The position numbers and the translations under genes were made by a program. 35,214 nucleotides of DNA from an uncultured Clostridia bacterium (lineage in GTDB: Bacteria; Bacillota; Clostridia; Oscillospirales; CAG-272): assembly GCA_944381075.1 (NCBI GenBank), contig CALWJT010000022.1:1-35214 (forward strand). Direction: 5' to 3'. The stretch's first letter is position 1, and each line of letters opens with the position of its first letter. Shown here in pieces: positions 6,180 through 12,328 of the stretch. The notes below the pieces were generated by a model. That model searched no databases and was not told where the DNA came from. It was given only the letters and a program-made list of their open reading frames with translations.

Positions 6180-7328
6180 ATGTCTTATCGTTTTGTACTC
6201 AATGAAACATCCTACCATGGCAAGGGTGCGATTGAAAATATCGTGCCGGAGCTTCAAACGCGCGGTTTAAAGAAGGCCTTTGTTTGCTCGGACCCGGATC
6301 TTTTGAAGTTCGGCGTTACTCAGAAAGTAACGGCCTTGCTCGATGCTGCAAAATTCCCGTATGAGGTGTATTCCAATATCAAACCCAACCCGACGATTGA
6401 AAACGTCCAGACCGGCGTTGCCGCATTCAAGGCGTCCGGTGCGGATTCCATCATCGCCATCGGCGGCGGCTCCTCTATGGATACGGCGAAGGCCATCGGC
6501 ATTATCATTGCCAATCCGGAGCATGAGGACGTGGCAAGTCTTGAGGGTGCTGTCGTGACCAAAAACAAGGCTGTCCCGACGATCGCCGTTCCGACGACGG
6601 CGGGAACCGCAGCGGAGGTCACCATCAATTATGTCATCACCGACGTAGAAAAGAACCGGAAATTCGTCTGCGTGGACCCGCATGATATCCCTGTCGTTGC
6701 GGTCATCGACCCCGATATGATGTCTACCATGCCGAAGGGCCTTACGGCAGCGACTGGCATGGATGCGTTGACCCATGCCATTGAAGGATATATTACCAAG
6801 GGCGCATGGGAGCTTTCCGATATGTTCCATCTCAAGGCGATCGAAATCATTTCCAAGAGCCTGCGCGGGGCCGTTGCCAATACGCCGGAGGGCAGAGAAG
6901 GTATGGCGCTCGGCCAGTATGTCGCCGGTATGGGCTTCTCCAATGTCGGGCTTGGCATCGTCCATTCGATGGCGCATCCGCTCGGCGCACTCTATGATAC
7001 GCCGCACGGCGTTGCCAATGCCATCATTCTCCCGACGGTGATGGAATACAATGCGCCGGCGACGGGCGACAAGTACCGTGATATCGCCAAGGCGATGGGA
7101 GTCGAGGGTACGGAAAAGATGAGCATCGAGGAGGCGCGCCGCGCTGCGATCGACGCGGTCAAGCAGCTTGCGCGCGACGTCGGCATCCCCGCGGATCTCA
7201 AGGCGATCGTCAAGGCGGAGGACATTCCGTTCCTTGCACAGTCGGCATATGATGACGCCTGCCGTCCCGGAAATCCGAGAGATACAAGCGTTGCGGAGAT
7301 CGCGGAGCTTTATCGTTCTCTGATTTGA
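6180..7328 (+). CDS. fucO: Iron-dependent lactaldehyde reductase / 1,2-propanediol oxidoreductase (FucO type)
   Basis: This 382-residue group III (iron-containing) alcohol dehydrogenase reduces L-lactaldehyde to 1,2-propanediol with NADH in fucose and rhamnose fermentation. The length equals that of enterobacterial FucO and the sequence follows it closely along its whole length from memory. Visible motifs are the nucleotide-binding GGGSSMDTAKAIG, then FVCVDPHDIP, the iron ligands Asp and His in GMDALTHAIEGY, and two more His in VHSMAHPLGALYDTPHG. The start is set by AAGGGAGG five bases upstream. It stands alone between its own promoter and terminator; no fucose isomerase, kinase or aldolase is adjacent, so it may serve methylpentose breakdown encoded elsewhere or general aldehyde disposal. 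Confidence 0.93.
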   Translation: MSYRFVLNETSYHGKGAIENIVPELQTRGLKKAFVCSDPDLLKFGVTQKVTALLDAAKFPYEVYSNIKPNPTIENVQTGVAAFKASGADSIIAIGGGSSMDTAKAIGIIIANPEHEDVASLEGAVVTKNKAVPTIAVPTTAGTAAEVTINYVITDVEKNRKFVCVDPHDIPVVAVIDPDMMSTMPKGLTAATGMDALTHAIEGYITKGAWELSDMFHLKAIEIISKSLRGAVANTPEGREGMALGQYVAGMGFSNVGLGIVHSMAHPLGALYDTPHGVANAIILPTVMEYNAPATGDKYRDIAKAMGVEGTEKMSIEEARRAAIDAVKQLARDVGIPADLKAIVKAEDIPFLAQSAYDDACRPGNPRDTSVAEIAELYRSLI

Positions 7329-7340
7329 TTTTTAAGGCGA

Positions 7341-7374
7341 AAGCCGGACATCCAAAGGATGTCCGGCTTTTTTG
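7341..7374 (+). terminator. Intrinsic terminator of fucO
   Basis: A 13-bp perfect stem (AAGCCGGACATCC 7341-7353, GGATGTCCGGCTT 7357-7369) with an AAA loop is followed by a T run. It begins 12 bases after the stop codon. Confidence 0.93.
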
Positions 7375-7624
7375 TGTGAAGCAGGTGAGGGAAGAGATCC
7401 ATTCGGAAAGTGACAAATAGGCGGGGATCCTTTGAGAAAGACCGGCCTTTCGGCACCCTGTCCGGCTTTGAGATGTATGGAAAACGGTATGTCGCAAGTC
7501 ATTCCACGGCTTTTGCTTCAAAGCCTGTTGCGGACCGCCTCCGCAGACAGTGCAGATGAACATGTCCGGTTCGGATTTTGGTTTTTGGCGCGCAAGCCCG
7601 AAAGTGAAAATCTCAGGGTCGCCG

Positions 7625-7903
7625 TTATACGGGACCGCATTGCTTTTTCCACAAGGTCAGATAATCATTGTAGGTGTAGTACGAATCCGACTGTTCCCGA
7701 TAGCACTTGCAAAAATCTGTGGAACCGCGGGAACGCTTTTCACGTTCCTCCCAGTCTTCGATGTAGAAAAACAGGTCGCTTTTGCTGCTTATGGCAATAT
7801 CCTTCATGCAGAAAAGCTCGCCGCTCTTGGATATACGAATATCGTGGAGTTCGGTGGTATCATAGATTGAAAGGGGAGACCGTGAGTGGAGAATGATCGT
7901 CAC
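7625..7903 (-). pseudogene. Possible small ORF or gene remnant
   Basis: A 92-codon frame on the minus strand begins with GTG two codons after a stop. There is no recognisable ribosome-binding site upstream. Its translation is compositionally protein-like (DLFFYIEDWEEREKRSR, then DFCKCYREQSDSYYTYND) and does not look like a random shadow, but I do not recognise a family. It lies directly against the boundary where base composition turns AT-rich (about 7905), so it could be the tail of a gene interrupted when the HNH island arrived. The other frames in 7380-7900 look spurious, and I see nothing else in that interval. Confidence 0.3.
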
Positions 7904-7979
7904 GGTTCAATATTTGCGCCGTAAGGAGCAAAGAAAAATGGCAAGGAATCTTATTGCCTTTCTATTTGCATAATTTGAG

Positions 7980-8008
7980 TTGACAAAATCACAGTTTTGT
8001 GATACAAT
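7980..8008 (+). promoter_or_regulatory. Strong promoter with internal palindrome, upstream of structured RNA/HNH gene
   Basis: TTGACA (7980-7985) and TACAAT (8003-8008) are 17 bases apart, a near-consensus sigma-A promoter. The spacer holds a perfect inverted repeat, ATCACA (7988-7993) GTTT TGTGAT (7998-8003), whose right arm touches the -10 box. A repressor bound there would block polymerase, so this is an operator candidate. The predicted transcript start, about 8014-8016, coincides with the first base of the closing stem of the structured RNA downstream. Confidence 0.75.
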
Positions 8009-8015
8009 AATTACG

Positions 8016-8160
8016 TAATTCAATAAAACTGACCCTTTTCGGATTATTATTATTCTGAAAATTAACCGACTGATCTTCTGGAACGCTATTATGAGGATCA
8101 CCCTTTGAGGTTTATAGCAATAGGTCGCCCTATGGTCGGTTACATGATTTTATTGAATTA
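8016..8160 (+). ncRNA. Predicted structured RNA (multi-branch, possible pseudoknot) upstream of HNH gene
   Basis: The segment is closed by a perfect 13-bp stem, TAATTCAATAAAA (8016-8028) with TTTTATTGAATTA (8148-8160). Inside are an 8-bp hairpin (8036-8043 with 8054-8061, 10-base loop, one G-U), an 8-bp stem TAACCGAC (8063-8070) with GTCGGTTA (8135-8142), and within that an 8-bp hairpin (8071-8078 with 8093-8100, one G-U) and a 5-bp hairpin ATAGG (8120-8124) with CCTAT (8129-8133) capped by TCGC. GCTAT (8085-8089) in a hairpin loop can pair with ATAGC (8114-8118), forming a pseudoknot. All pairings were checked base by base by eye. I match it to no known riboswitch, T-box, 6S or tRNA-like fold. 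It could be a free small RNA, a leader controlling the HNH gene, or a guide/partner RNA. Confidence 0.6.
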
Positions 8161-8201
8161 ACTTCATCGCAGGAGGCATAGGCATCTTTCCGTATTAAGT
8201 T

Positions 8202-9179
8202 ATGGGAGAGAGCAAACAACAACTTTTGAATTTAAATCGAGAAACCGCTATGCGGCTTTGGAACAAATCCTTTGGCAAGGAAACAAAAGTATCTGATTTT
8301 GCCGGAAGAATAATTGCTAAAGGTGCTTACGATGACCGTAATAGCAAATTCGGATGGAATGTAGATCATATCTTGCCGCAAAGCAGAGGTGGGACAACTG
8401 TAGAGCACAATTTGATTTGTTGCCACATCAAAACGAATGATGAGAAATCTAATATATTTCCATGCTTTAACGCAAACGGAAAAGCTTTTGAAATCATTAA
8501 AGTTCAAAATCATTACGAGATTCGAGCAAAGGGAAAGGAAACTGAAAAAGAGAGTAATTCGGATAAGCTTGATTTATATGATTCTGCATCAGGCGTAAGA
8601 TTCTTTAAGAAGTTAAAAGGTCTCCAAAACAAAAAAAGATTTGTTGGAACGGTGTTCATTAGGTTGAATGGGCTGACCAATACAGCGTTAGTTGATTTCA
8701 TTGAAAAAATGTTAGAACAAGAGAGTCTGTCGTTCAAAATCGAAAGTTCATCGTATGGTGCCAATTTAATTATTGTAGCGCATAACTATAATATGCTGTT
8801 GAAAGAGGACAGCTCTGAGTTGCTTGATAAATGTGTTTTGATGAACACTTATCTATCAAACTATTTCGTCCCATGTGAATATATCAAAGGCTTTGATGTG
8901 TACTATAGGGTTGATTGCTTTGAAGACAAATTCTCAATGTATAAAGAACTTGCTAACATCAATTACACCAATATGAACTATAAGCCAGGTACTTCTTGGA
9001 GTACAGGAATGTATTCTCAGCAGAGTTATCAAAATTCTCTGTTTGTTAATGGTCTCGTGTTAGAAAATACCAAGGCAGGGGAGAAGGTAACTCATCAAAC
9101 TAATTCGGAATACACCGAATACAATTTTGTGTTTACGAATTTGTCTCAAAATTTAAAGAAGGAGGTAAGCGGAAAGTAA
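8202..9179 (+). CDS. HNH endonuclease with unrecognised C-terminal domain
   Basis: This 325-residue protein has an N-terminal HNH nuclease fold at about residues 12-95: RLWNKSFGKE and AGRIIAKGAYDDRNS lead into VDHILPQSRGG (Asp55-His56), followed by EHNLICCHIKTNDEKSN (Asn70, His75). Residues 110-135 are a charged linker. Residues 138-325 form a mixed alpha/beta region that I do not recognise (for example FVGTVFIRLNGLTNTALVDF and CEYIKGFDVYYRVD). No RuvC, methylase or helicase motif is present, so it is not IscB or Cas9. The ATG at 8202 comes right after an in-frame stop and has no Shine-Dalgarno; an AGGAGG lies 25 bases upstream (8171-8176). The gene is much more AT-rich than its neighbours, which suggests transfer. 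A mobile-element homing nuclease or a phage-defence nuclease are both possible. Confidence 0.75.
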   Translation: MGESKQQLLNLNRETAMRLWNKSFGKETKVSDFAGRIIAKGAYDDRNSKFGWNVDHILPQSRGGTTVEHNLICCHIKTNDEKSNIFPCFNANGKAFEIIKVQNHYEIRAKGKETEKESNSDKLDLYDSASGVRFFKKLKGLQNKKRFVGTVFIRLNGLTNTALVDFIEKMLEQESLSFKIESSSYGANLIIVAHNYNMLLKEDSSELLDKCVLMNTYLSNYFVPCEYIKGFDVYYRVDCFEDKFSMYKELANINYTNMNYKPGTSWSTGMYSQQSYQNSLFVNGLVLENTKAGEKVTHQTNSEYTEYNFVFTNLSQNLKKEVSGK

Positions 9180-9204
9180 AATTGCCTTTGCCTCAATGAT
9201 GAAA

Positions 9205-9244
9205 AGGGAGAATGATGGGCGACAATCATTCTCCCTAAATTTTT
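9205..9244 (+). terminator. Intrinsic terminator of the HNH gene
   Basis: A 12-bp perfect stem (AGGGAGAATGAT 9205-9216, ATCATTCTCCCT 9225-9236) with an 8-base loop is followed by AAATTTTT. It closes the promoter-RNA-HNH transcription unit. Confidence 0.85.
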
Positions 9245-9275
9245 ACCTCTCAAAATTTACGTCAGATAAAATAAA

Positions 9276-9308
9276 GAAAAAAGGCTTTGAAATTTTGATC
9301 TCAAAGCC
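9276..9308 (-). terminator. Terminator of tRNA-Pro
   Basis: Read on the minus strand, GGCTTTGA (9308-9301) pairs with TCAAAGCC (9290-9283) and runs into six T residues. It starts 5 bases after the tRNA 3' end. Confidence 0.8.
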
Positions 9309-9313
9309 CAAAA

Positions 9314-9389
9314 TGGTCGGAGTGACAGGGTTCGAACCTGCGGCCTCAACATCCCAAATGTCGCGCGCTACCAACTGCGCTACACCCCG
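9314..9389 (-). tRNA. tRNA-Pro (anticodon TGG)
   Basis: A 76-base cloverleaf is readable on the minus strand. The acceptor CGGGGTG pairs with CACTCCG (one G-U), the D arm is GCGC-AGTTGGTA-GCGC, the anticodon stem CGACA/TGTTG carries loop TTTGGGA (anticodon TGG), the T arm is GCAGG-TTCGAAC-CCTGT, and the 3' end ACCA is encoded. The C1-G72 pair is typical of proline tRNAs. It decodes CCN/CCA-type proline codons. Its 3' end faces the AT-rich HNH island. Confidence 0.97.
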
Positions 9390-9500
9390 AAAATATGAAA
9401 TTCTGTACAAAGCTGCGATTATGATAGGGCAGAAACTGTTTTTTTCTCAAAGCGGCAGTTCATGGTCGTTGTTTTGTACACAGTTTATGGTACCGTTGAT

Positions 9501-9529
9501 ATTATAATCGAAAACTTCATCTTTGTCAA
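9501..9529 (-). promoter_or_regulatory. Consensus promoter of tRNA-Pro
   Basis: On the minus strand a perfect TTGACA (9529-9524) and a perfect TATAAT (9506-9501) are separated by 17 bases. The leader of about 105 bases before the tRNA contains no further tRNA that I can find. Confidence 0.88.
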
Positions 9530-9555
9530 TGCTTTGCAAAACAGGAGATATAAAA

Positions 9556-9590
9556 ATTCTGTCCGGACGATGGAATGCTCCGAACAGAAT
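9556..9590 (-). terminator. Terminator of the membrane-protein gene
   Basis: On the minus strand, ATTCTGTTCGGA pairs with TCCGGACAGAAT (12 bp, one G-U) around an 11-base loop and is followed by TTTTTAT. It lies 10 bases past the stop codon of the gene at 9600-10100. Confidence 0.85.
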
Positions 9591-9599
9591 GAGAGGGCG

Positions 9600-10100
9600 C
9601 TATTGCCGTTTTTGCAATTTTTCTTCTTCCATCAACTGCCGGCGCGCTTTGAAAACCGTTTTATAATAGATATTGGCTTTCTTCTCCAGGACAAGAAAAA
9701 GCATGCTGATGACCTGTATATAGGCGGTCAGGAGAAAGACGGCGGTGTATAAGCGCACAAAAGGATAAGCTTCCGGGTCAAATAGAACAGGGTAAAGCGA
9801 AAAGGTTTGAACGACCATTATCATGCCGCCGACGACTCCGAGCAGCGCCATCATTTTGATTCCAATATAGATGCTCCACGCAAAAAAGACGGCGACAAGG
9901 AACAGAATGATATTCTGGACGGATATTGTGAAATATCCGAGCGCGGCGCCCGTGAGCTCTGCAAGCAGGCACAGAAAACGTGCCGCGAGAAAAACGGCCA
10001 GAACAATCCCGCACCTCCGCTTGCCGGAGACTGCTTCCGGGGTTTCCTGCATGGCGTTGTCGATAAGCTGTTTTGCTCTTATTTTCCGCGGATTTTTCAT
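9600..10100 (-). CDS. Hypothetical four-helix integral membrane protein
   Basis: This 166-residue protein has a basic N-terminus (MKNPRKIRAKQ), four predicted membrane segments at about residues 31-55, 60-78, 82-103 and 115-137, and a highly charged C-terminal tail (KARRQLMEEEKLQKR). I do not recognise a family. The start is supported by GGGAGG nine bases upstream. It has its own promoter and terminator, so it is a single-gene unit. Both ends being cytoplasmic would fit the positive charges, but the topology is inferred. Confidence 0.72.
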   Translation of the reverse strand: MKNPRKIRAKQLIDNAMQETPEAVSGKRRCGIVLAVFLAARFLCLLAELTGAALGYFTISVQNIILFLVAVFFAWSIYIGIKMMALLGVVGGMIMVVQTFSLYPVLFDPEAYPFVRLYTAVFLLTAYIQVISMLFLVLEKKANIYYKTVFKARRQLMEEEKLQKRQ

Positions 10101-10137
10101 AAGACGGCGCCTCCCAGCTCACATGGTTTTCATAGAT

Positions 10138-10166
10138 ATAATATCATATTTGTTATTTTCTGTCAA
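10138..10166 (-). promoter_or_regulatory. Promoter of the membrane-protein gene
   Basis: On the minus strand, TTGACA (10166-10161) and TATTAT (10143-10138) are spaced by 17 bases, about 38 bases before the start codon. Confidence 0.8.
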
Positions 10167-10170
10167 TCAT

Positions 10171-10207
10171 AAAAAAGCACCTTGGAACCAATGCCGCAAG
10201 GTGCTTT
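10171..10207 (-). terminator. Terminator of the protease/cyclophilin operon
   Basis: On the minus strand, AAAGCACCTT (10207-10198) pairs with AAGGTGCTTT (10183-10174) and runs into six T residues. It starts 8 bases after the cyclophilin stop codon. Confidence 0.88.
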
Positions 10208-10214
10208 CGGATTT

Positions 10215-10865
10215 TTATTCTTCCACGATTCGAATGCTGACGATTACGGGCTGGTCCGCTTTGTCAACCGCTCCATTCGTGCCGGACTGGACATCCTCGC
10301 AGATCGCATCCACAAATTCCATGCCGGAGGTGACCCAGCCGAACGCTGCATATTTTCCGTCAAGTTCAGTATTATCCGCGTGCATGATAAAGAACTGCGA
10401 GCTTGCGGAGTTCATTGCCTCTTCGGCGCTGACGAGGGAGGATTCGCCCAGTCTTGCCATGGAAAGGATGCCGCGCGTATGCGAAAGGTCATTTTCGATG
10501 CCATTATCGGAAAATTCGCCGGTAATGGTATCCGGAGAGCCGCCCGTCCCGTCGCCGTTCGGGTCGCCGCCCTGGATCATAAAGCCGGAGATGATGCGGT
10601 GGAACGTGAGTCCGTCGTAAAAGCCTTCGTTTGCAAGCTTGATAAAATTCTGGACCGTGATAGGTGCGACCGTTTCGTCCAGCGCGACCGTGATGATGCC
10701 ATAGCCTTTTACTGTGATCTCCGCATGATGGATGGTGTGTCCCGTCGTATCAATGCTGAGCTCCGGCGTGAATTCTTTTCCGTAGGTTTCCGTTGTGTCT
10801 GCGCACGAGCAGCAGAAAAGCGCCGTGAGGGCGAGCACAAGGATCCATGCAATGGTTTTTCTCAT
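10215..10865 (-). CDS. Secreted/lipoprotein cyclophilin-type peptidyl-prolyl isomerase
   Basis: The 216-residue product from the chosen ATG has an N-terminal signal (MRKTIAWILVLALTALFCCSC) with a Cys-rich lipobox-like end, so it is probably anchored outside the membrane. The cyclophilin domain fills the rest: VAPITVQNFIKLANEGFYDG, then FHRIISGFMIQGGDPNGDGT (the FHR catalytic motif), ARLGESS, SQFFIMHADN and FGWVTSGMEFVDAI. Cyclophilins catalyse proline isomerisation during protein folding. I chose 10865 because the signal peptide begins there; MAKKGKHS at 10890 is possible but would overlap the preceding stop codon. The gene follows the M6 protease by 29 bases and shares its promoter, so a folding role for exported proteins is likely. 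Confidence 0.93.
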   Translation of the reverse strand: MRKTIAWILVLALTALFCCSCADTTETYGKEFTPELSIDTTGHTIHHAEITVKGYGIITVALDETVAPITVQNFIKLANEGFYDGLTFHRIISGFMIQGGDPNGDGTGGSPDTITGEFSDNGIENDLSHTRGILSMARLGESSLVSAEEAMNSASSQFFIMHADNTELDGKYAAFGWVTSGMEFVDAICEDVQSGTNGAVDKADQPVIVSIRIVEE

Positions 10866-10894
10866 AGAATGCTTTCCTTTCTTTGCCATGTATT

Positions 10895-12328
10895 TTAGCT
10901 TCTTTTGATTCGGATGCGCATTTCGGCGCCCGGTGCGTCGAGGACGTCTATTATCAGCTTCCAATCCGGAGAGACGCCCTCCGGGAATCGGTTCAGCGAG
11001 TAGGAACCCGATGCGGCGCCGCAGTAAAGGGAGGAATCAAAGTGTCCGGTGCCGGCGTCGTCCGAGGCGTAGAAGAACGGGTCCTCGGTGATATTCTTTT
11101 CCTTATAGCAGGGGCCGTATTTGATGAAATGGCCGTCCTCGTCCGTGATTTCCGTGAACATATTGCGCAGGCGGATGGCGTTGCCAAGATCGTGCCGTTT
11201 GCCTCCCGGAAGATTCGAGGAGACGCACTGCGCCTTGAGGAACCACTCCCGATTGATCGCTTCGTCGATCTGCCAGATGATGACGCCGCCCTTGGAATCG
11301 CCGGGGGTGAGCTGCGATTCAAAGCCTTCCTTGAGGCGTACCTCGCACAGGAAATATTCGTCCGGATCGGGCGTCGGGATCTTCAAAACGGAATATTTGC
11401 CGGAAAGGGTAGAGAAGAGCGTATATTCGCCGTCCTTTTCGGCTGTGATCTCCTCCGCCCAGCCGAGATAGATGCGCTGATAGGGATCGATATAGGCAGG
11501 TCTTGTGCCGCTTCCCAGATGATTGCCCCAGGACATCAAAGAGAAGTTGAGAGGCAGCGGCCAGCCGAATACCTGTTCTGCCGGCGGGGTATAGCGGCAG
11601 TACATATCCTGCGCGCCGACGTTGTGCGCGAGCTCATGCGCCGGCGTGCCGATGGTGATGGGACCGGTCGAGTTGTATTCGCCGATATTGGATACCCGCA
11701 CGATCTTCACGCCGCCGCTCATTTCGGCGTCGGTCGGCTGGCTGGTCCCGTGCACCATGAAGCGATGGCTTGGGATCGGACCGTTTTCACAGACGATCTT
11801 GGAAAATTCCTCGTCTGCCTTGGTGGAGGCGCGGTCATAGCCCGCATTCAGGATGACGATGGCGAGCTCGTCAGGCGTGACAAGTCCGTCGCCGTTTTTA
11901 TCGTATTTTGCAAAATCGATGTATGGATCGCATGCCGCCACGATGTCGTGGATGGCTTTGGCTGCGGCAGTTTCGTTGTTGTATCCCTCAAGATTGCGCA
12001 GCGCCGCGGGATGGGGCAGCGGGACGGTGATCTCAAGGATCCCCTCGGGCGCATTTTCGCGCTGAGGATGGTCGATGGGAACAGGATAGAACCAGAATTT
12101 TCCAAGTGTCATTTCCTTATAGTAATTCATCATGGAAAATCCGCTCTCGCCGAAGAAGCGCTCATAGCAGTCCTCCGGCTTGGAAATGGCCCATTGCTCT
12201 CCGTAGATGGGAGAGGTCTTGTCATAAAGCAGCTCAGGGTGAGCGGGGTCGTAATCGTTTTTTCCGTTGCCGTTGGGATCAAAGCTTGCAATGACGATCA
12301 GCAGGGGCGCGGGATGGATGGGTTTCAT
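10895..12328 (-). CDS. M6-family (immune inhibitor A-like) metalloprotease
   Basis: This 477-residue protein carries the zinc-protease motif HELAHNVGAQDMY, the extended HExxHxxGxxD of the gluzincin/M6 group, near residue 228, followed by SLMSWGNHLG, the Met-turn-like segment. An EF-hand-like calcium loop, DKNGDGLVTPDE, is present near residue 139. Start choice: ATG at 12328 has AGAGGA seven bases upstream; an upstream ATG would overlap the promoter. From this start there is no signal peptide: the protein begins MKPIHPAPLLIVIASFDPNG, already the first domain strand. M6 proteases are normally secreted, so either this one stays inside the cell or it leaves by another route. It is co-transcribed with the lipoprotein cyclophilin downstream. 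Confidence 0.85.
   Translation of the reverse strand: MKPIHPAPLLIVIASFDPNGNGKNDYDPAHPELLYDKTSPIYGEQWAISKPEDCYERFFGESGFSMMNYYKEMTLGKFWFYPVPIDHPQRENAPEGILEITVPLPHPAALRNLEGYNNETAAAKAIHDIVAACDPYIDFAKYDKNGDGLVTPDELAIVILNAGYDRASTKADEEFSKIVCENGPIPSHRFMVHGTSQPTDAEMSGGVKIVRVSNIGEYNSTGPITIGTPAHELAHNVGAQDMYCRYTPPAEQVFGWPLPLNFSLMSWGNHLGSGTRPAYIDPYQRIYLGWAEEITAEKDGEYTLFSTLSGKYSVLKIPTPDPDEYFLCEVRLKEGFESQLTPGDSKGGVIIWQIDEAINREWFLKAQCVSSNLPGGKRHDLGNAIRLRNMFTEITDEDGHFIKYGPCYKEKNITEDPFFYASDDAGTGHFDSSLYCGAASGSYSLNRFPEGVSPDWKLIIDVLDAPGAEMRIRIKRS

What the first reader, a model, noticed from the sequence alone, without database searches (positions are those of the whole stretch)
7980..9244. Structured RNA plus HNH nuclease: candidate undescribed RNA-nuclease cassette
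A near-consensus promoter starts transcription at the first base of a 145-nt segment closed by a perfect 13-bp stem, with three or four internal helices (8, 8, 8 and 5 bp) and a 5-bp loop-loop pseudoknot (8085-8089 with 8114-8118). It ends 42 bases before an HNH endonuclease gene, and the unit closes with a strong terminator. HEARO/IscB elements have the same order (RNA upstream of an HNH-containing nuclease), but this protein has no RuvC domain. The whole unit is AT-rich, as expected for an acquired element.
Basis: partly seen in the sequence, partly recalled or inferred. Interest (0 to 1): 0.82.

Follow-up and report, generated by a model that had tools for sequence, protein, structure and literature searches.

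The report
RNA–HNH nuclease mobile cassette
A small mobile DNA cassette in a bacterium pairs an already catalogued but functionally unexplained structured RNA with its own DNA-cutting-enzyme gene, and in most copies examined the two sit together, which gives the orphan RNA a likely partner that can be tested.

Summary
At 8016-8160 there is a real, strongly covarying pseudoknotted RNA behind an 11/12 sigma-70-like promoter, 41 nt before an intact HNH gene (8202-9179), closed by a terminator (9205-9236). The RNA is not undescribed: it is Rfam RF03112, 'Staphylococcus-1 RNA' (126 bits; gathering 87.7), typed sRNA. I found no mention of its partner in the papers I could search; the source survey is not held. 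Of 24 loci with the full-length HNH protein, 21 carry RF03112 just upstream (17 above gathering, 4 diverged below it). The three without it are one clade with a degraded HNH active site. Five of five other loci reached through the RNA carry the HNH gene. DNA homology between most distant loci is confined to the cassette, and cassettes 93% identical sit in two bacterial families, so it moves as a unit; in 5 of 21 copies it lies by a tRNA 3' end. No guide-like stretch shared by the loci is visible, and the protein has no RuvC or PLMP match, so it is not HEARO/IscB. The C-terminal domain looks ferredoxin-like, without significant match. Best reading: a ribonucleoprotein in which a dedicated, non-guide RNA controls an HNH DNase, probably for defence. 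That is inferred; a cis-acting leader is the main rival.

The parts
7980..8008 (+). sigma-70-type promoter, extended -10
   Evidence: 11 of 12 matches, spacer 17, TG before -10; hexamers in the alignment consensus
8016..8160 (+). structured RNA, Rfam RF03112 (Staphylococcus-1 RNA)
   Evidence: 126.1 bits, gathering 87.7; covariation; fold z -4.36; ends taken from the P1 stem, not mapped
8016..8028 (+). P1 5' strand, pairs with 8148-8160 (13 bp)
   Evidence: 10 of 13 pairs with change on both sides, 87.4% of cells paired
8148..8160 (+). P1 3' strand
8036..8061 (+). P2 hairpin with loop of variable length (3-16 nt over 20 loci)
8065..8071 (+). P3 5' strand, pairs with 8134-8140
   Evidence: 6 of 7 pairs with change on both sides
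8134..8140 (+). P3 3' strand
8072..8078 (+). helix strand pairing with 8093-8099; crosses P4 (pseudoknot)
   Evidence: 95.7% paired, 3 pairs with change on both sides
8093..8099 (+). partner of 8072-8078
8085..8089 (+).
   Evidence: 91.6% paired, 2 pairs with change on both sides
8114..8118 (+). P4 3' strand
8100..8111 (+). small hairpin RCC-CUUUGA-GGY, near-invariant
   Evidence: 60 of 60 cells pair, but 45 of 500 shuffles do as well; inconclusive
8120..8133 (+). P5 hairpin
   Evidence: 94.9% paired, 3 pairs with change on both sides
8171..8176 (+). AGGAGG Shine-Dalgarno-like, unusually 25 nt before the ATG
8202..9179 (+). HNH nuclease gene, 325 aa; HNH part in aa 1-110 (D55, H56, N79 intact), C-terminal ferredoxin-like domain aa ~125-325
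9205..9236 (+). intrinsic terminator, 3' end of the conserved unit
9314..9389 (-). tRNA-Pro (TGG), 3' end facing the cassette: likely insertion neighbourhood, not part of the unit

Best explanation
The unit is a self-contained mobile cassette making a ribonucleoprotein: a Cas9/IscB-type HNH DNase and a dedicated ~145-nt pseudoknotted RNA made from the same promoter (shown by sequence: promoter-like site, RNA structure, gene order, co-inheritance; inferred: that the RNA is released from the transcript and binds the protein). Because no guide shared by the loci is visible, I infer that the RNA controls the nuclease rather than aims it: it holds the HNH protein in a safe or poised state, and infection or another intrusion that disturbs or consumes the RNA frees the DNase to cut DNA (defence by abortive infection or restriction). 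It would work like the RNA-guarded toxins AbiF/RCd22 and ToxIN, with a DNase in place of an RNase. Binding, inhibition, DNA cutting and defence are all inferred.
For: 21 of 24 full-length loci carry the RNA upstream; 5 of 5 loci other than the window that were reached through the RNA carry the HNH gene (RNA; gene). The 3 without RNA form one clade (100/100) that has lost D55 and N79, and in one member H56, so RNA and nuclease residues went together. Strong covariation. The pair moves alone. Island- or phage-like settings in some: IMG/VR contig with two ORFs that I read as serine recombinases, integrase beside L073 and SIR2/NB-ARC/TPR protein beside L072, a type I specificity subunit about 5.8 kb from L015. 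Patchy: 3 of 59 relatives, 3 of 325 genomes of the order.
Against: No terminator-like site between RNA and gene, unlike AbiF (passages) and ToxIN (recalled), so an excess of free RNA is not built in. No RNA-binding site is identified: the most conserved C-terminal motif (D-K-C-x3-N-T-Y, aa 209-217) is kept in the clade that lost the RNA, and no fold was matched significantly. The co-loss is one evolutionary event. Defence genes are not consistent neighbours: of 20 near neighbours sent to Pfam, 3 look mobile- or defence-like (integrase, SIR2/NB-ARC/TPR, AAA_21), and others are housekeeping or unknown; PADLOC matched 2 of 10 further neighbours and has no model for the protein itself.
Confidence: 0.42

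Rival explanations
1. The RNA is a cis-acting leader of the HNH mRNA: it senses something or is bound by the HNH protein and sets its translation or stability. It has no separate life as an sRNA.
For: In the 21 RNA-bearing loci it lies upstream on the same strand as the gene, about 40-45 nt before the start codon in 14 of 20 (those figures run about 1 nt high). No terminator separates them. The Shine-Dalgarno-like AGGAGG is 25 nt from the ATG, and a conserved UCUUUCC can pair with it or with bases after the ATG; 10 of 10 leaders folded (of 14 aligned) are more stable than the mean of their shuffles, but weakly (z -0.7 to -2.5).
Against: P1 closes the RNA at the predicted 5' end and does not touch the Shine-Dalgarno site, so no expression platform is visible. 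In my judgement the core is more conserved than a leader needs. Rfam types it as an sRNA gene.
Confidence: 0.27
2. A selfish homing-type element: HNH cuts DNA at or near tRNA 3' ends so that the cassette is copied in, and the RNA assists the cut or the copying.
For: Cassette-only transfer between families (93% over 1357 bp, L072/L073). In 5 of 21 contexts ARAGORN finds a tRNA within 600 bp, in all five on the tRNA's 3' side; L004 has a further tRNA-like Rfam match only (34.3 bits), and L018 lies by the 23S rRNA 3' end. 30-nt direct repeats flank the L072 cassette 1359 bp apart and resemble a tRNA-Arg 3' end (my reading).
Against: The tRNAs differ (Pro, Arg, Ser, Trp) and 16 of 21 contexts have none within 600 bp by ARAGORN. 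Tyrosine integrases, one of which lies by L073, explain tRNA targeting without the HNH protein. No copy of the tRNA 3' end was found on the far side in the window, L073, L079, L081 or L082.
Confidence: 0.13
3. An RNA-guided nuclease, HEARO/IscB- or Cas9-like, with the RNA as guide or scaffold.
For: Same order (RNA upstream of HNH) and a Cas9/IscB-type HNH (weak). The P2 loop does vary, 3-16 nt.
Against: Among RNA columns filled in at least 10 of 20 loci the longest run of unpaired variable columns is 2; the length-variable P2 loop columns were not in that count, but the loop is 3-5 nt in 8 of 20 loci. No RF02033 match, no RuvC or PLMP domain, no repeat array nearby. A guide supplied by a separate RNA is not excluded.
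Confidence: 0.08
4. The RNA acts in trans on other host genes and only travels with HNH as a fellow passenger of islands.
For: Rfam type is sRNA; the core carries a conserved CUUUGA loop (15 of 20 loci identical).
Against: Linkage in 21 of 24 loci over Clostridia and Mycoplasmatota, and loss together with active-site residues.
Confidence: 0.1

Closest known systems
Rfam RF03112, Staphylococcus-1 RNA
   Same: It is this RNA: 126.1 bits, whole model 1-127 matched
   Different: The entry as the tool returns it names no function or partner; this work adds the HNH link, a crossing helix (8072-8078/8093-8099) not in the nested structure line, and range to Mycoplasmatota
HEARO / IscB (OMEGA) and IshB
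   Same: RNA directly upstream of an HNH-containing nuclease; HNH subtype
   Different: No HEARO RNA match, no RuvC, no PLMP/RRXRR match, no shared guide segment; different C-terminal domain
AbiF/Abi_2 with ncRNA RCd22 (RF03085)
   Same: Mobile two-part unit, structured ncRNA with an effector, found in prophages; ncRNA binds and neutralises its toxin (PMC12373285, passages seen)
   Different: Effector is HNH, not Abi_2; no terminator between RNA and gene here; binding not tested
ToxIN type III toxin-antitoxin
   Same: RNA pseudoknot co-transcribed with an effector (PMC5772629, start of abstract)
   Different: ToxI is a repeat array and ToxN an RNase (PMC8860590, start of abstract, for type III); here one RNA copy and an HNH DNase
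DUF3800 RNA motifs
   Same: Putative structured RNA associated with a nuclease-type protein (one passage of PMC10910872)
   Different: Other protein fold and other RNA; not compared here

Membership tests
RF03112 Staphylococcus-1 RNA | covariance-model score over the gathering threshold | tested here: met
   126.1 vs 87.7 bits, full model
RF03112 Staphylococcus-1 RNA | independent covariation of its helices | tested here: met
   27 of 42 pairs with a change on both sides, 0 of 500 shuffles as high
HEARO/IscB (OMEGA) | omega RNA (HEARO RNA, RF02033; accession recalled) | tested here: not met
   in the window only RF03112 and a tRNA reach gathering; at 7900-8320 only RF03112 at E up to 1
HEARO/IscB (OMEGA) | RuvC nuclease domain | tested here: not met
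   Pfam reports HNH families plus one sub-threshold SMC_ScpB match; NCBIfam Cas9/IscB matches cover the HNH part only
HEARO/IscB (OMEGA) | variable guide segment in the RNA | tested here: not met
   longest unpaired variable run 2 among columns filled in at least 10 of 20 loci; P2 loop 3-16 nt, 3-5 nt in 8 of 20
IshB (HNH without RuvC) | N-terminal PLMP/RRXRR domain | tested here: not met
   no such Pfam match to E 1; family definition recalled
CRISPR type II / Cas9d | repeat-spacer array and full-length Cas9 | tested here: not met
   only a 24-bp, 2-copy repeat at 6500-11000; Cas9d profile matched over aa 53-87 only. Other cas genes were not searched for
Type III toxin-antitoxin | tandem-repeat RNA, terminator between RNA and gene, RNase toxin | tested here: not met
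   single RNA copy, no terminator-like site between RNA and gene, HNH domain
Type III toxin-antitoxin | RNA neutralises the protein | not testable with these tools
   needs expression experiments
AbiF/Abi_2 + RF03085 | Abi_2 domain and abiF RNA motif | tested here: not met
   neither reported
Intron-borne homing endonuclease | self-splicing intron around the gene | tested here: not met
   no intron family at gathering in the window
TIGR-Tas | tandem dual-guide array and Nop-type domain | tested here: not met
   no array near the gene, no Nop domain in Pfam; family definition recalled

The most novel reading that the evidence does not exclude
RF03112 is the dedicated RNA subunit of a previously unrecognised class of mobile ribonucleoprotein, an RNA-gated HNH DNase with a new C-terminal domain, in which a guide-less structured RNA switches a Cas9-type nuclease on or off during phage or plasmid invasion.
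Probability: 0.35. Interest if true: 0.88.

Novelty: new variant of a known kind. Interest (0 to 1): 0.62.

Why it matters
An orphan RNA family gains a partner that it accompanied in every locus reached through the RNA (5 of 5 besides the window), which turns 'function unknown' into a direct experiment: does the RNA bind and control the HNH protein? If it does, Cas9-type HNH nucleases are run not only by guides but also by a structured RNA without a guide, which bears on how RNA-nuclease systems arise. The clade that lost both RNA and active-site residues is a natural control.

Tried and rejected
Guide hypothesis: scored unpaired variability over 20 loci, no shared candidate segment; columns filled in fewer than 10 loci, which include most of the longer P2 loops, were left out of that count. 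The complement of the conserved CCCUUUGAGG occurs nowhere else in the window. Plasmid and phage collections are nearly empty for protein and RNA: one Mycoplasmopsis cynos record (L015; RF03112 at 65.4 bits, below gathering) and partial HNH-only matches (Roseovarius, Mesomycoplasma, one unannotated phage record); viral contigs gave one contig. Phylum-wide RF03112 search found only the window (1 of 398), but it scored at most 8 candidates per genome; an exact pattern over 398 genomes of the phylum found none (the window itself does not match that pattern). Empty-site comparison inside the genus failed: matches outside the own locus fell on the tRNA stretch. Repeat of the window's tRNA-Pro 3' end: none. 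Fold searches: nothing at E <= 0.001 for the whole protein or the C-terminal domain; the best for the domain are PII-like, designed ferredoxin-like, LarC2 and ACT-type folds at E 0.02-0.14, so the fold class is named with caution and no homology is claimed. Homology confined to the cassette has exceptions: L074 and L075 also share a 266-bp stretch nearby, L004 and L012 a 261-bp stretch, and the RNA-less L086/L087/L088 share longer flanks; matches up to 150 bp were not printed in that comparison. Staphylococcus genomes could not be reached, so I cannot say whether the Rfam seed loci carry HNH genes. The paper I recall as the source of the family (Weinberg 2017, NAR) is not held: its supplement may mention the HNH neighbour. 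Full-text searches for the family name and accession found nothing (one search had no occurrence of the name in the 15 papers listed), and searches joining HNH with noncoding RNA and defence terms listed no such system (lists seen, not papers). Small hairpin 8100-8111: pairs in all loci but is not beyond chance. Tree: the dead clade is one event, its place unresolved; L037, L035 and L015 are long branches. Rough translations of short relatives made in that script were printed and stored, not used in the tree.

Full report
OBSERVATION. RNAfold gives -39 kcal/mol for 8016-8160, z -4.36, none of 200 shuffles as stable. The 13-bp stem 8016-8028/8148-8160 is exact. cmscan against Rfam identifies the segment as RF03112, 'Staphylococcus-1 RNA', 126.1 bits against a gathering score of 87.7. 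I recall that the family comes from the 2017 Weinberg survey; that paper is not held, and searches of the library for the name or accession found nothing.

COVARIATION. I aligned 20 upstream regions by sequence only (L092 was found later and is not among them) and counted the named structure, including the crossing helix 8072-8078/8093-8099 against 8085-8089/8114-8118. 91.1% of 811 cells pair, 27 of 42 pairs have changes on both sides (shuffled mean 14.4), 83 cells have such a change (mean 27.0), and 0 of 500 shuffles reach these values; the number of further pair types, 52, is reached by 7 of 500. Sliding the partners by 1 to 3 columns gives 29-48% paired. The shuffles do not keep relatedness, the slid control does. 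The pseudoknot is well supported. A further small hairpin (8100-8111) pairs in every locus but is not beyond chance.

THE PROTEIN. ORF 8202-9179 (325 aa) matches Pfam HNH_4 above its cut-off (25.2 vs 22); Cas9d, Cas9 and IscB models match the HNH stretch and little more (aa 51-115), far below their cut-offs; PADLOC has nothing. D55, H56 and N79 are the catalytic pattern by analogy with Cas9 HNH (recalled). AlphaFold2 gives pLDDT 79.0, pTM 0.57 for the whole and 85.3 and 0.82 for the C-terminal part alone, with strand-helix-strand-strand-helix-strand order. Foldseek found nothing at E <= 0.001, no Pfam family covers the part convincingly (best of 21 members E 0.011), and no PDB sequence matches its profile. 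It looks like a ferredoxin-like domain without named relatives.

PARTNERSHIP. I reached 24 loci with the full-length protein (one, L012, cut by its contig end): the window, L002-L015 (14 loci), L018, L031-L037 (7 loci) and L092. RF03112 lies just upstream in 21: 17 above the gathering score and four below it (L032 81.5, L015 65.4, L037 43.8, L035 42.4 bits). All 21 keep D55, H56 and N79. Five loci other than the window were reached through the RNA: G010 and G054, G623 and G1488 and one IMG/VR contig (this contig and G623 had also been found by protein); all five carry the HNH gene. The ten genomes or records searched around known loci hold one RNA copy each. In the phylum of G835, 47 of 392 genomes have some match to the protein, 8 of them full-length, the others over the HNH half only. 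Of the HNH-only loci (with L019) 23 were scanned and 23 showed no RF03112 (E up to 1, up to 0.1).

CO-LOSS. The three full-length loci without RNA (L033, L034, L036; none at E up to 1) changed D55 to G or E and N79 to L or K, and L036 also H56 to Q. They form one group with 100/100 support. In L036 the gene starts 2 nt after another ORF, leaving no room for the RNA. Of 12 positions kept in the 20 RNA-bearing rows used (L012 left out; at most one exception allowed) and changed in all three, 10 lie in aa 1-110 and 2 in the C-terminal domain, whose D-K-C-x3-N-T-Y motif is kept. So RNA and catalytic residues were lost together, but this is one event, and the C-terminal motif is not simply the RNA site.

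A MOBILE UNIT. DNA homology between distant loci is mostly confined to the cassette: window 8017-9235 against L094, with only the tRNA matching besides, 8003-9234 against L004, 8017-9234 against L077. Other pairs match over part of the cassette only. L072 and L073, from different families, are 93% identical over 1357 bp with no other match over 150 bp. Exceptions are L074/L075 (a further 266 bp), L004/L012 (261 bp) and the RNA-less L086/L087/L088. L072's copy lies between 30-nt direct repeats 1359 bp apart that resemble the tRNA-Arg 3' end beside L073 (my reading). In 5 of the 21 RNA-bearing contexts ARAGORN finds a tRNA within 600 bp, each with its 3' end towards the cassette: window (Pro), L073 (Arg), L079 (Arg), L081 (Ser), L082 (Trp). 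With an assumed chance of 3% per locus, 5 or more of 20 has probability 2.6e-4; with 5%, 2.6e-3. L018 sits by the 23S rRNA 3' end. One copy lies behind two ORFs that I read as serine recombinases in an IMG/VR contig. Of 121 ORFs near 17 loci I sent 20 near neighbours to Pfam: integrase, SIR2/NB-ARC/TPR and AAA_21 proteins, but also IMP dehydrogenase, RecA, a tRNA methyltransferase and others; 10 others went to PADLOC, of which 2 match.

NO SHARED GUIDE. Among RNA columns filled in at least 10 of 20 loci the longest run of unpaired, variable columns is two. The length-variable part is the P2 loop, 3-16 nt (16 in the window), 3-5 nt in 8 of 20 loci. That speaks against a built-in guide common to the family.

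MECHANISM. I think a ribonucleoprotein is most likely, with the RNA controlling an HNH DNase. The nearest working parallels are AbiF, whose ncRNA RCd22 binds and neutralises the protein (PMC12373285, passages seen), and ToxIN (PMC5772629, start of abstract). Against a plain antitoxin stands the missing terminator between RNA and gene. A cis-acting leader remains a serious rival: the AGGAGG lies 25 nt before the ATG and the leader can fold, though weakly. Binding, inhibition, defence and RNA processing are all untested.

VERDICT. Observation confirmed; interpretation partly supported. A known orphan RNA gains a protein partner in 21 of 24 loci, within a mobile cassette whose function is open but directly testable.

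Noticed in passing
   Followed up: partly
L038-L059, L019: Short relatives matching only the HNH half (about 100-145 aa) are frequent in the G835 phylum, some beside ORFs that read like serine recombinases (L040-L042); in some the D of the D-H pair is H. No RF03112 in the 23 loci scanned.
   Followed up: partly
L044:138-1827 and L081:6924-8413: A short HNH gene in G1137 sits behind a RecA-like ORF and a tRNA, the same setting as the RNA-HNH cassette of G908 (recA, tRNA-Ser): possibly one shared insertion site.
   Followed up: no
L049:1507-2778: A 423-aa protein (code 4) that appears to hold more than one copy of the HNH-like unit in tandem.
   Followed up: no
L072:9340-9369 and 10699-10728: 30-nt direct repeats (90% identical) enclose the RNA-HNH cassette and look like a tRNA 3' end: a minimal 1.36-kb island.
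   Followed up: partly
window 8161-8212: Shine-Dalgarno-like AGGAGG 25 nt before the ATG, with a conserved UCUUUCC that can pair with it or with bases after the ATG: possible translational control.
   Followed up: partly
L072:10966-13743: SIR2/NB-ARC/TPR protein next to the cassette, resembling known kinds of defence proteins.
   Followed up: no
L094:5148-5223: In G1488 (same family as the window's genome) the cassette lies about 2.9 kb from a tRNA-Pro (TGG), the same tRNA that stands beside the window's cassette.
   Followed up: partly
L078:7634-8458: A different HNH protein (Pfam HNH, HNH_2) is encoded close to the L078 cassette.
   Followed up: no
L092:1688-2488: An RlaP-type gene (RNA repair polymerase-beta family) starts about 100 nt from the RNA of G1488, on the opposite strand.
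   Followed up: no
L006:5117-5205: A group II intron fragment (Rfam RF02001, cut by the contig end) lies just downstream of the L006 cassette.
   Followed up: no
window 7625-7903 (-): A 92-aa ORF without Pfam match in the stretch before the cassette; may be a remnant.
   Followed up: no
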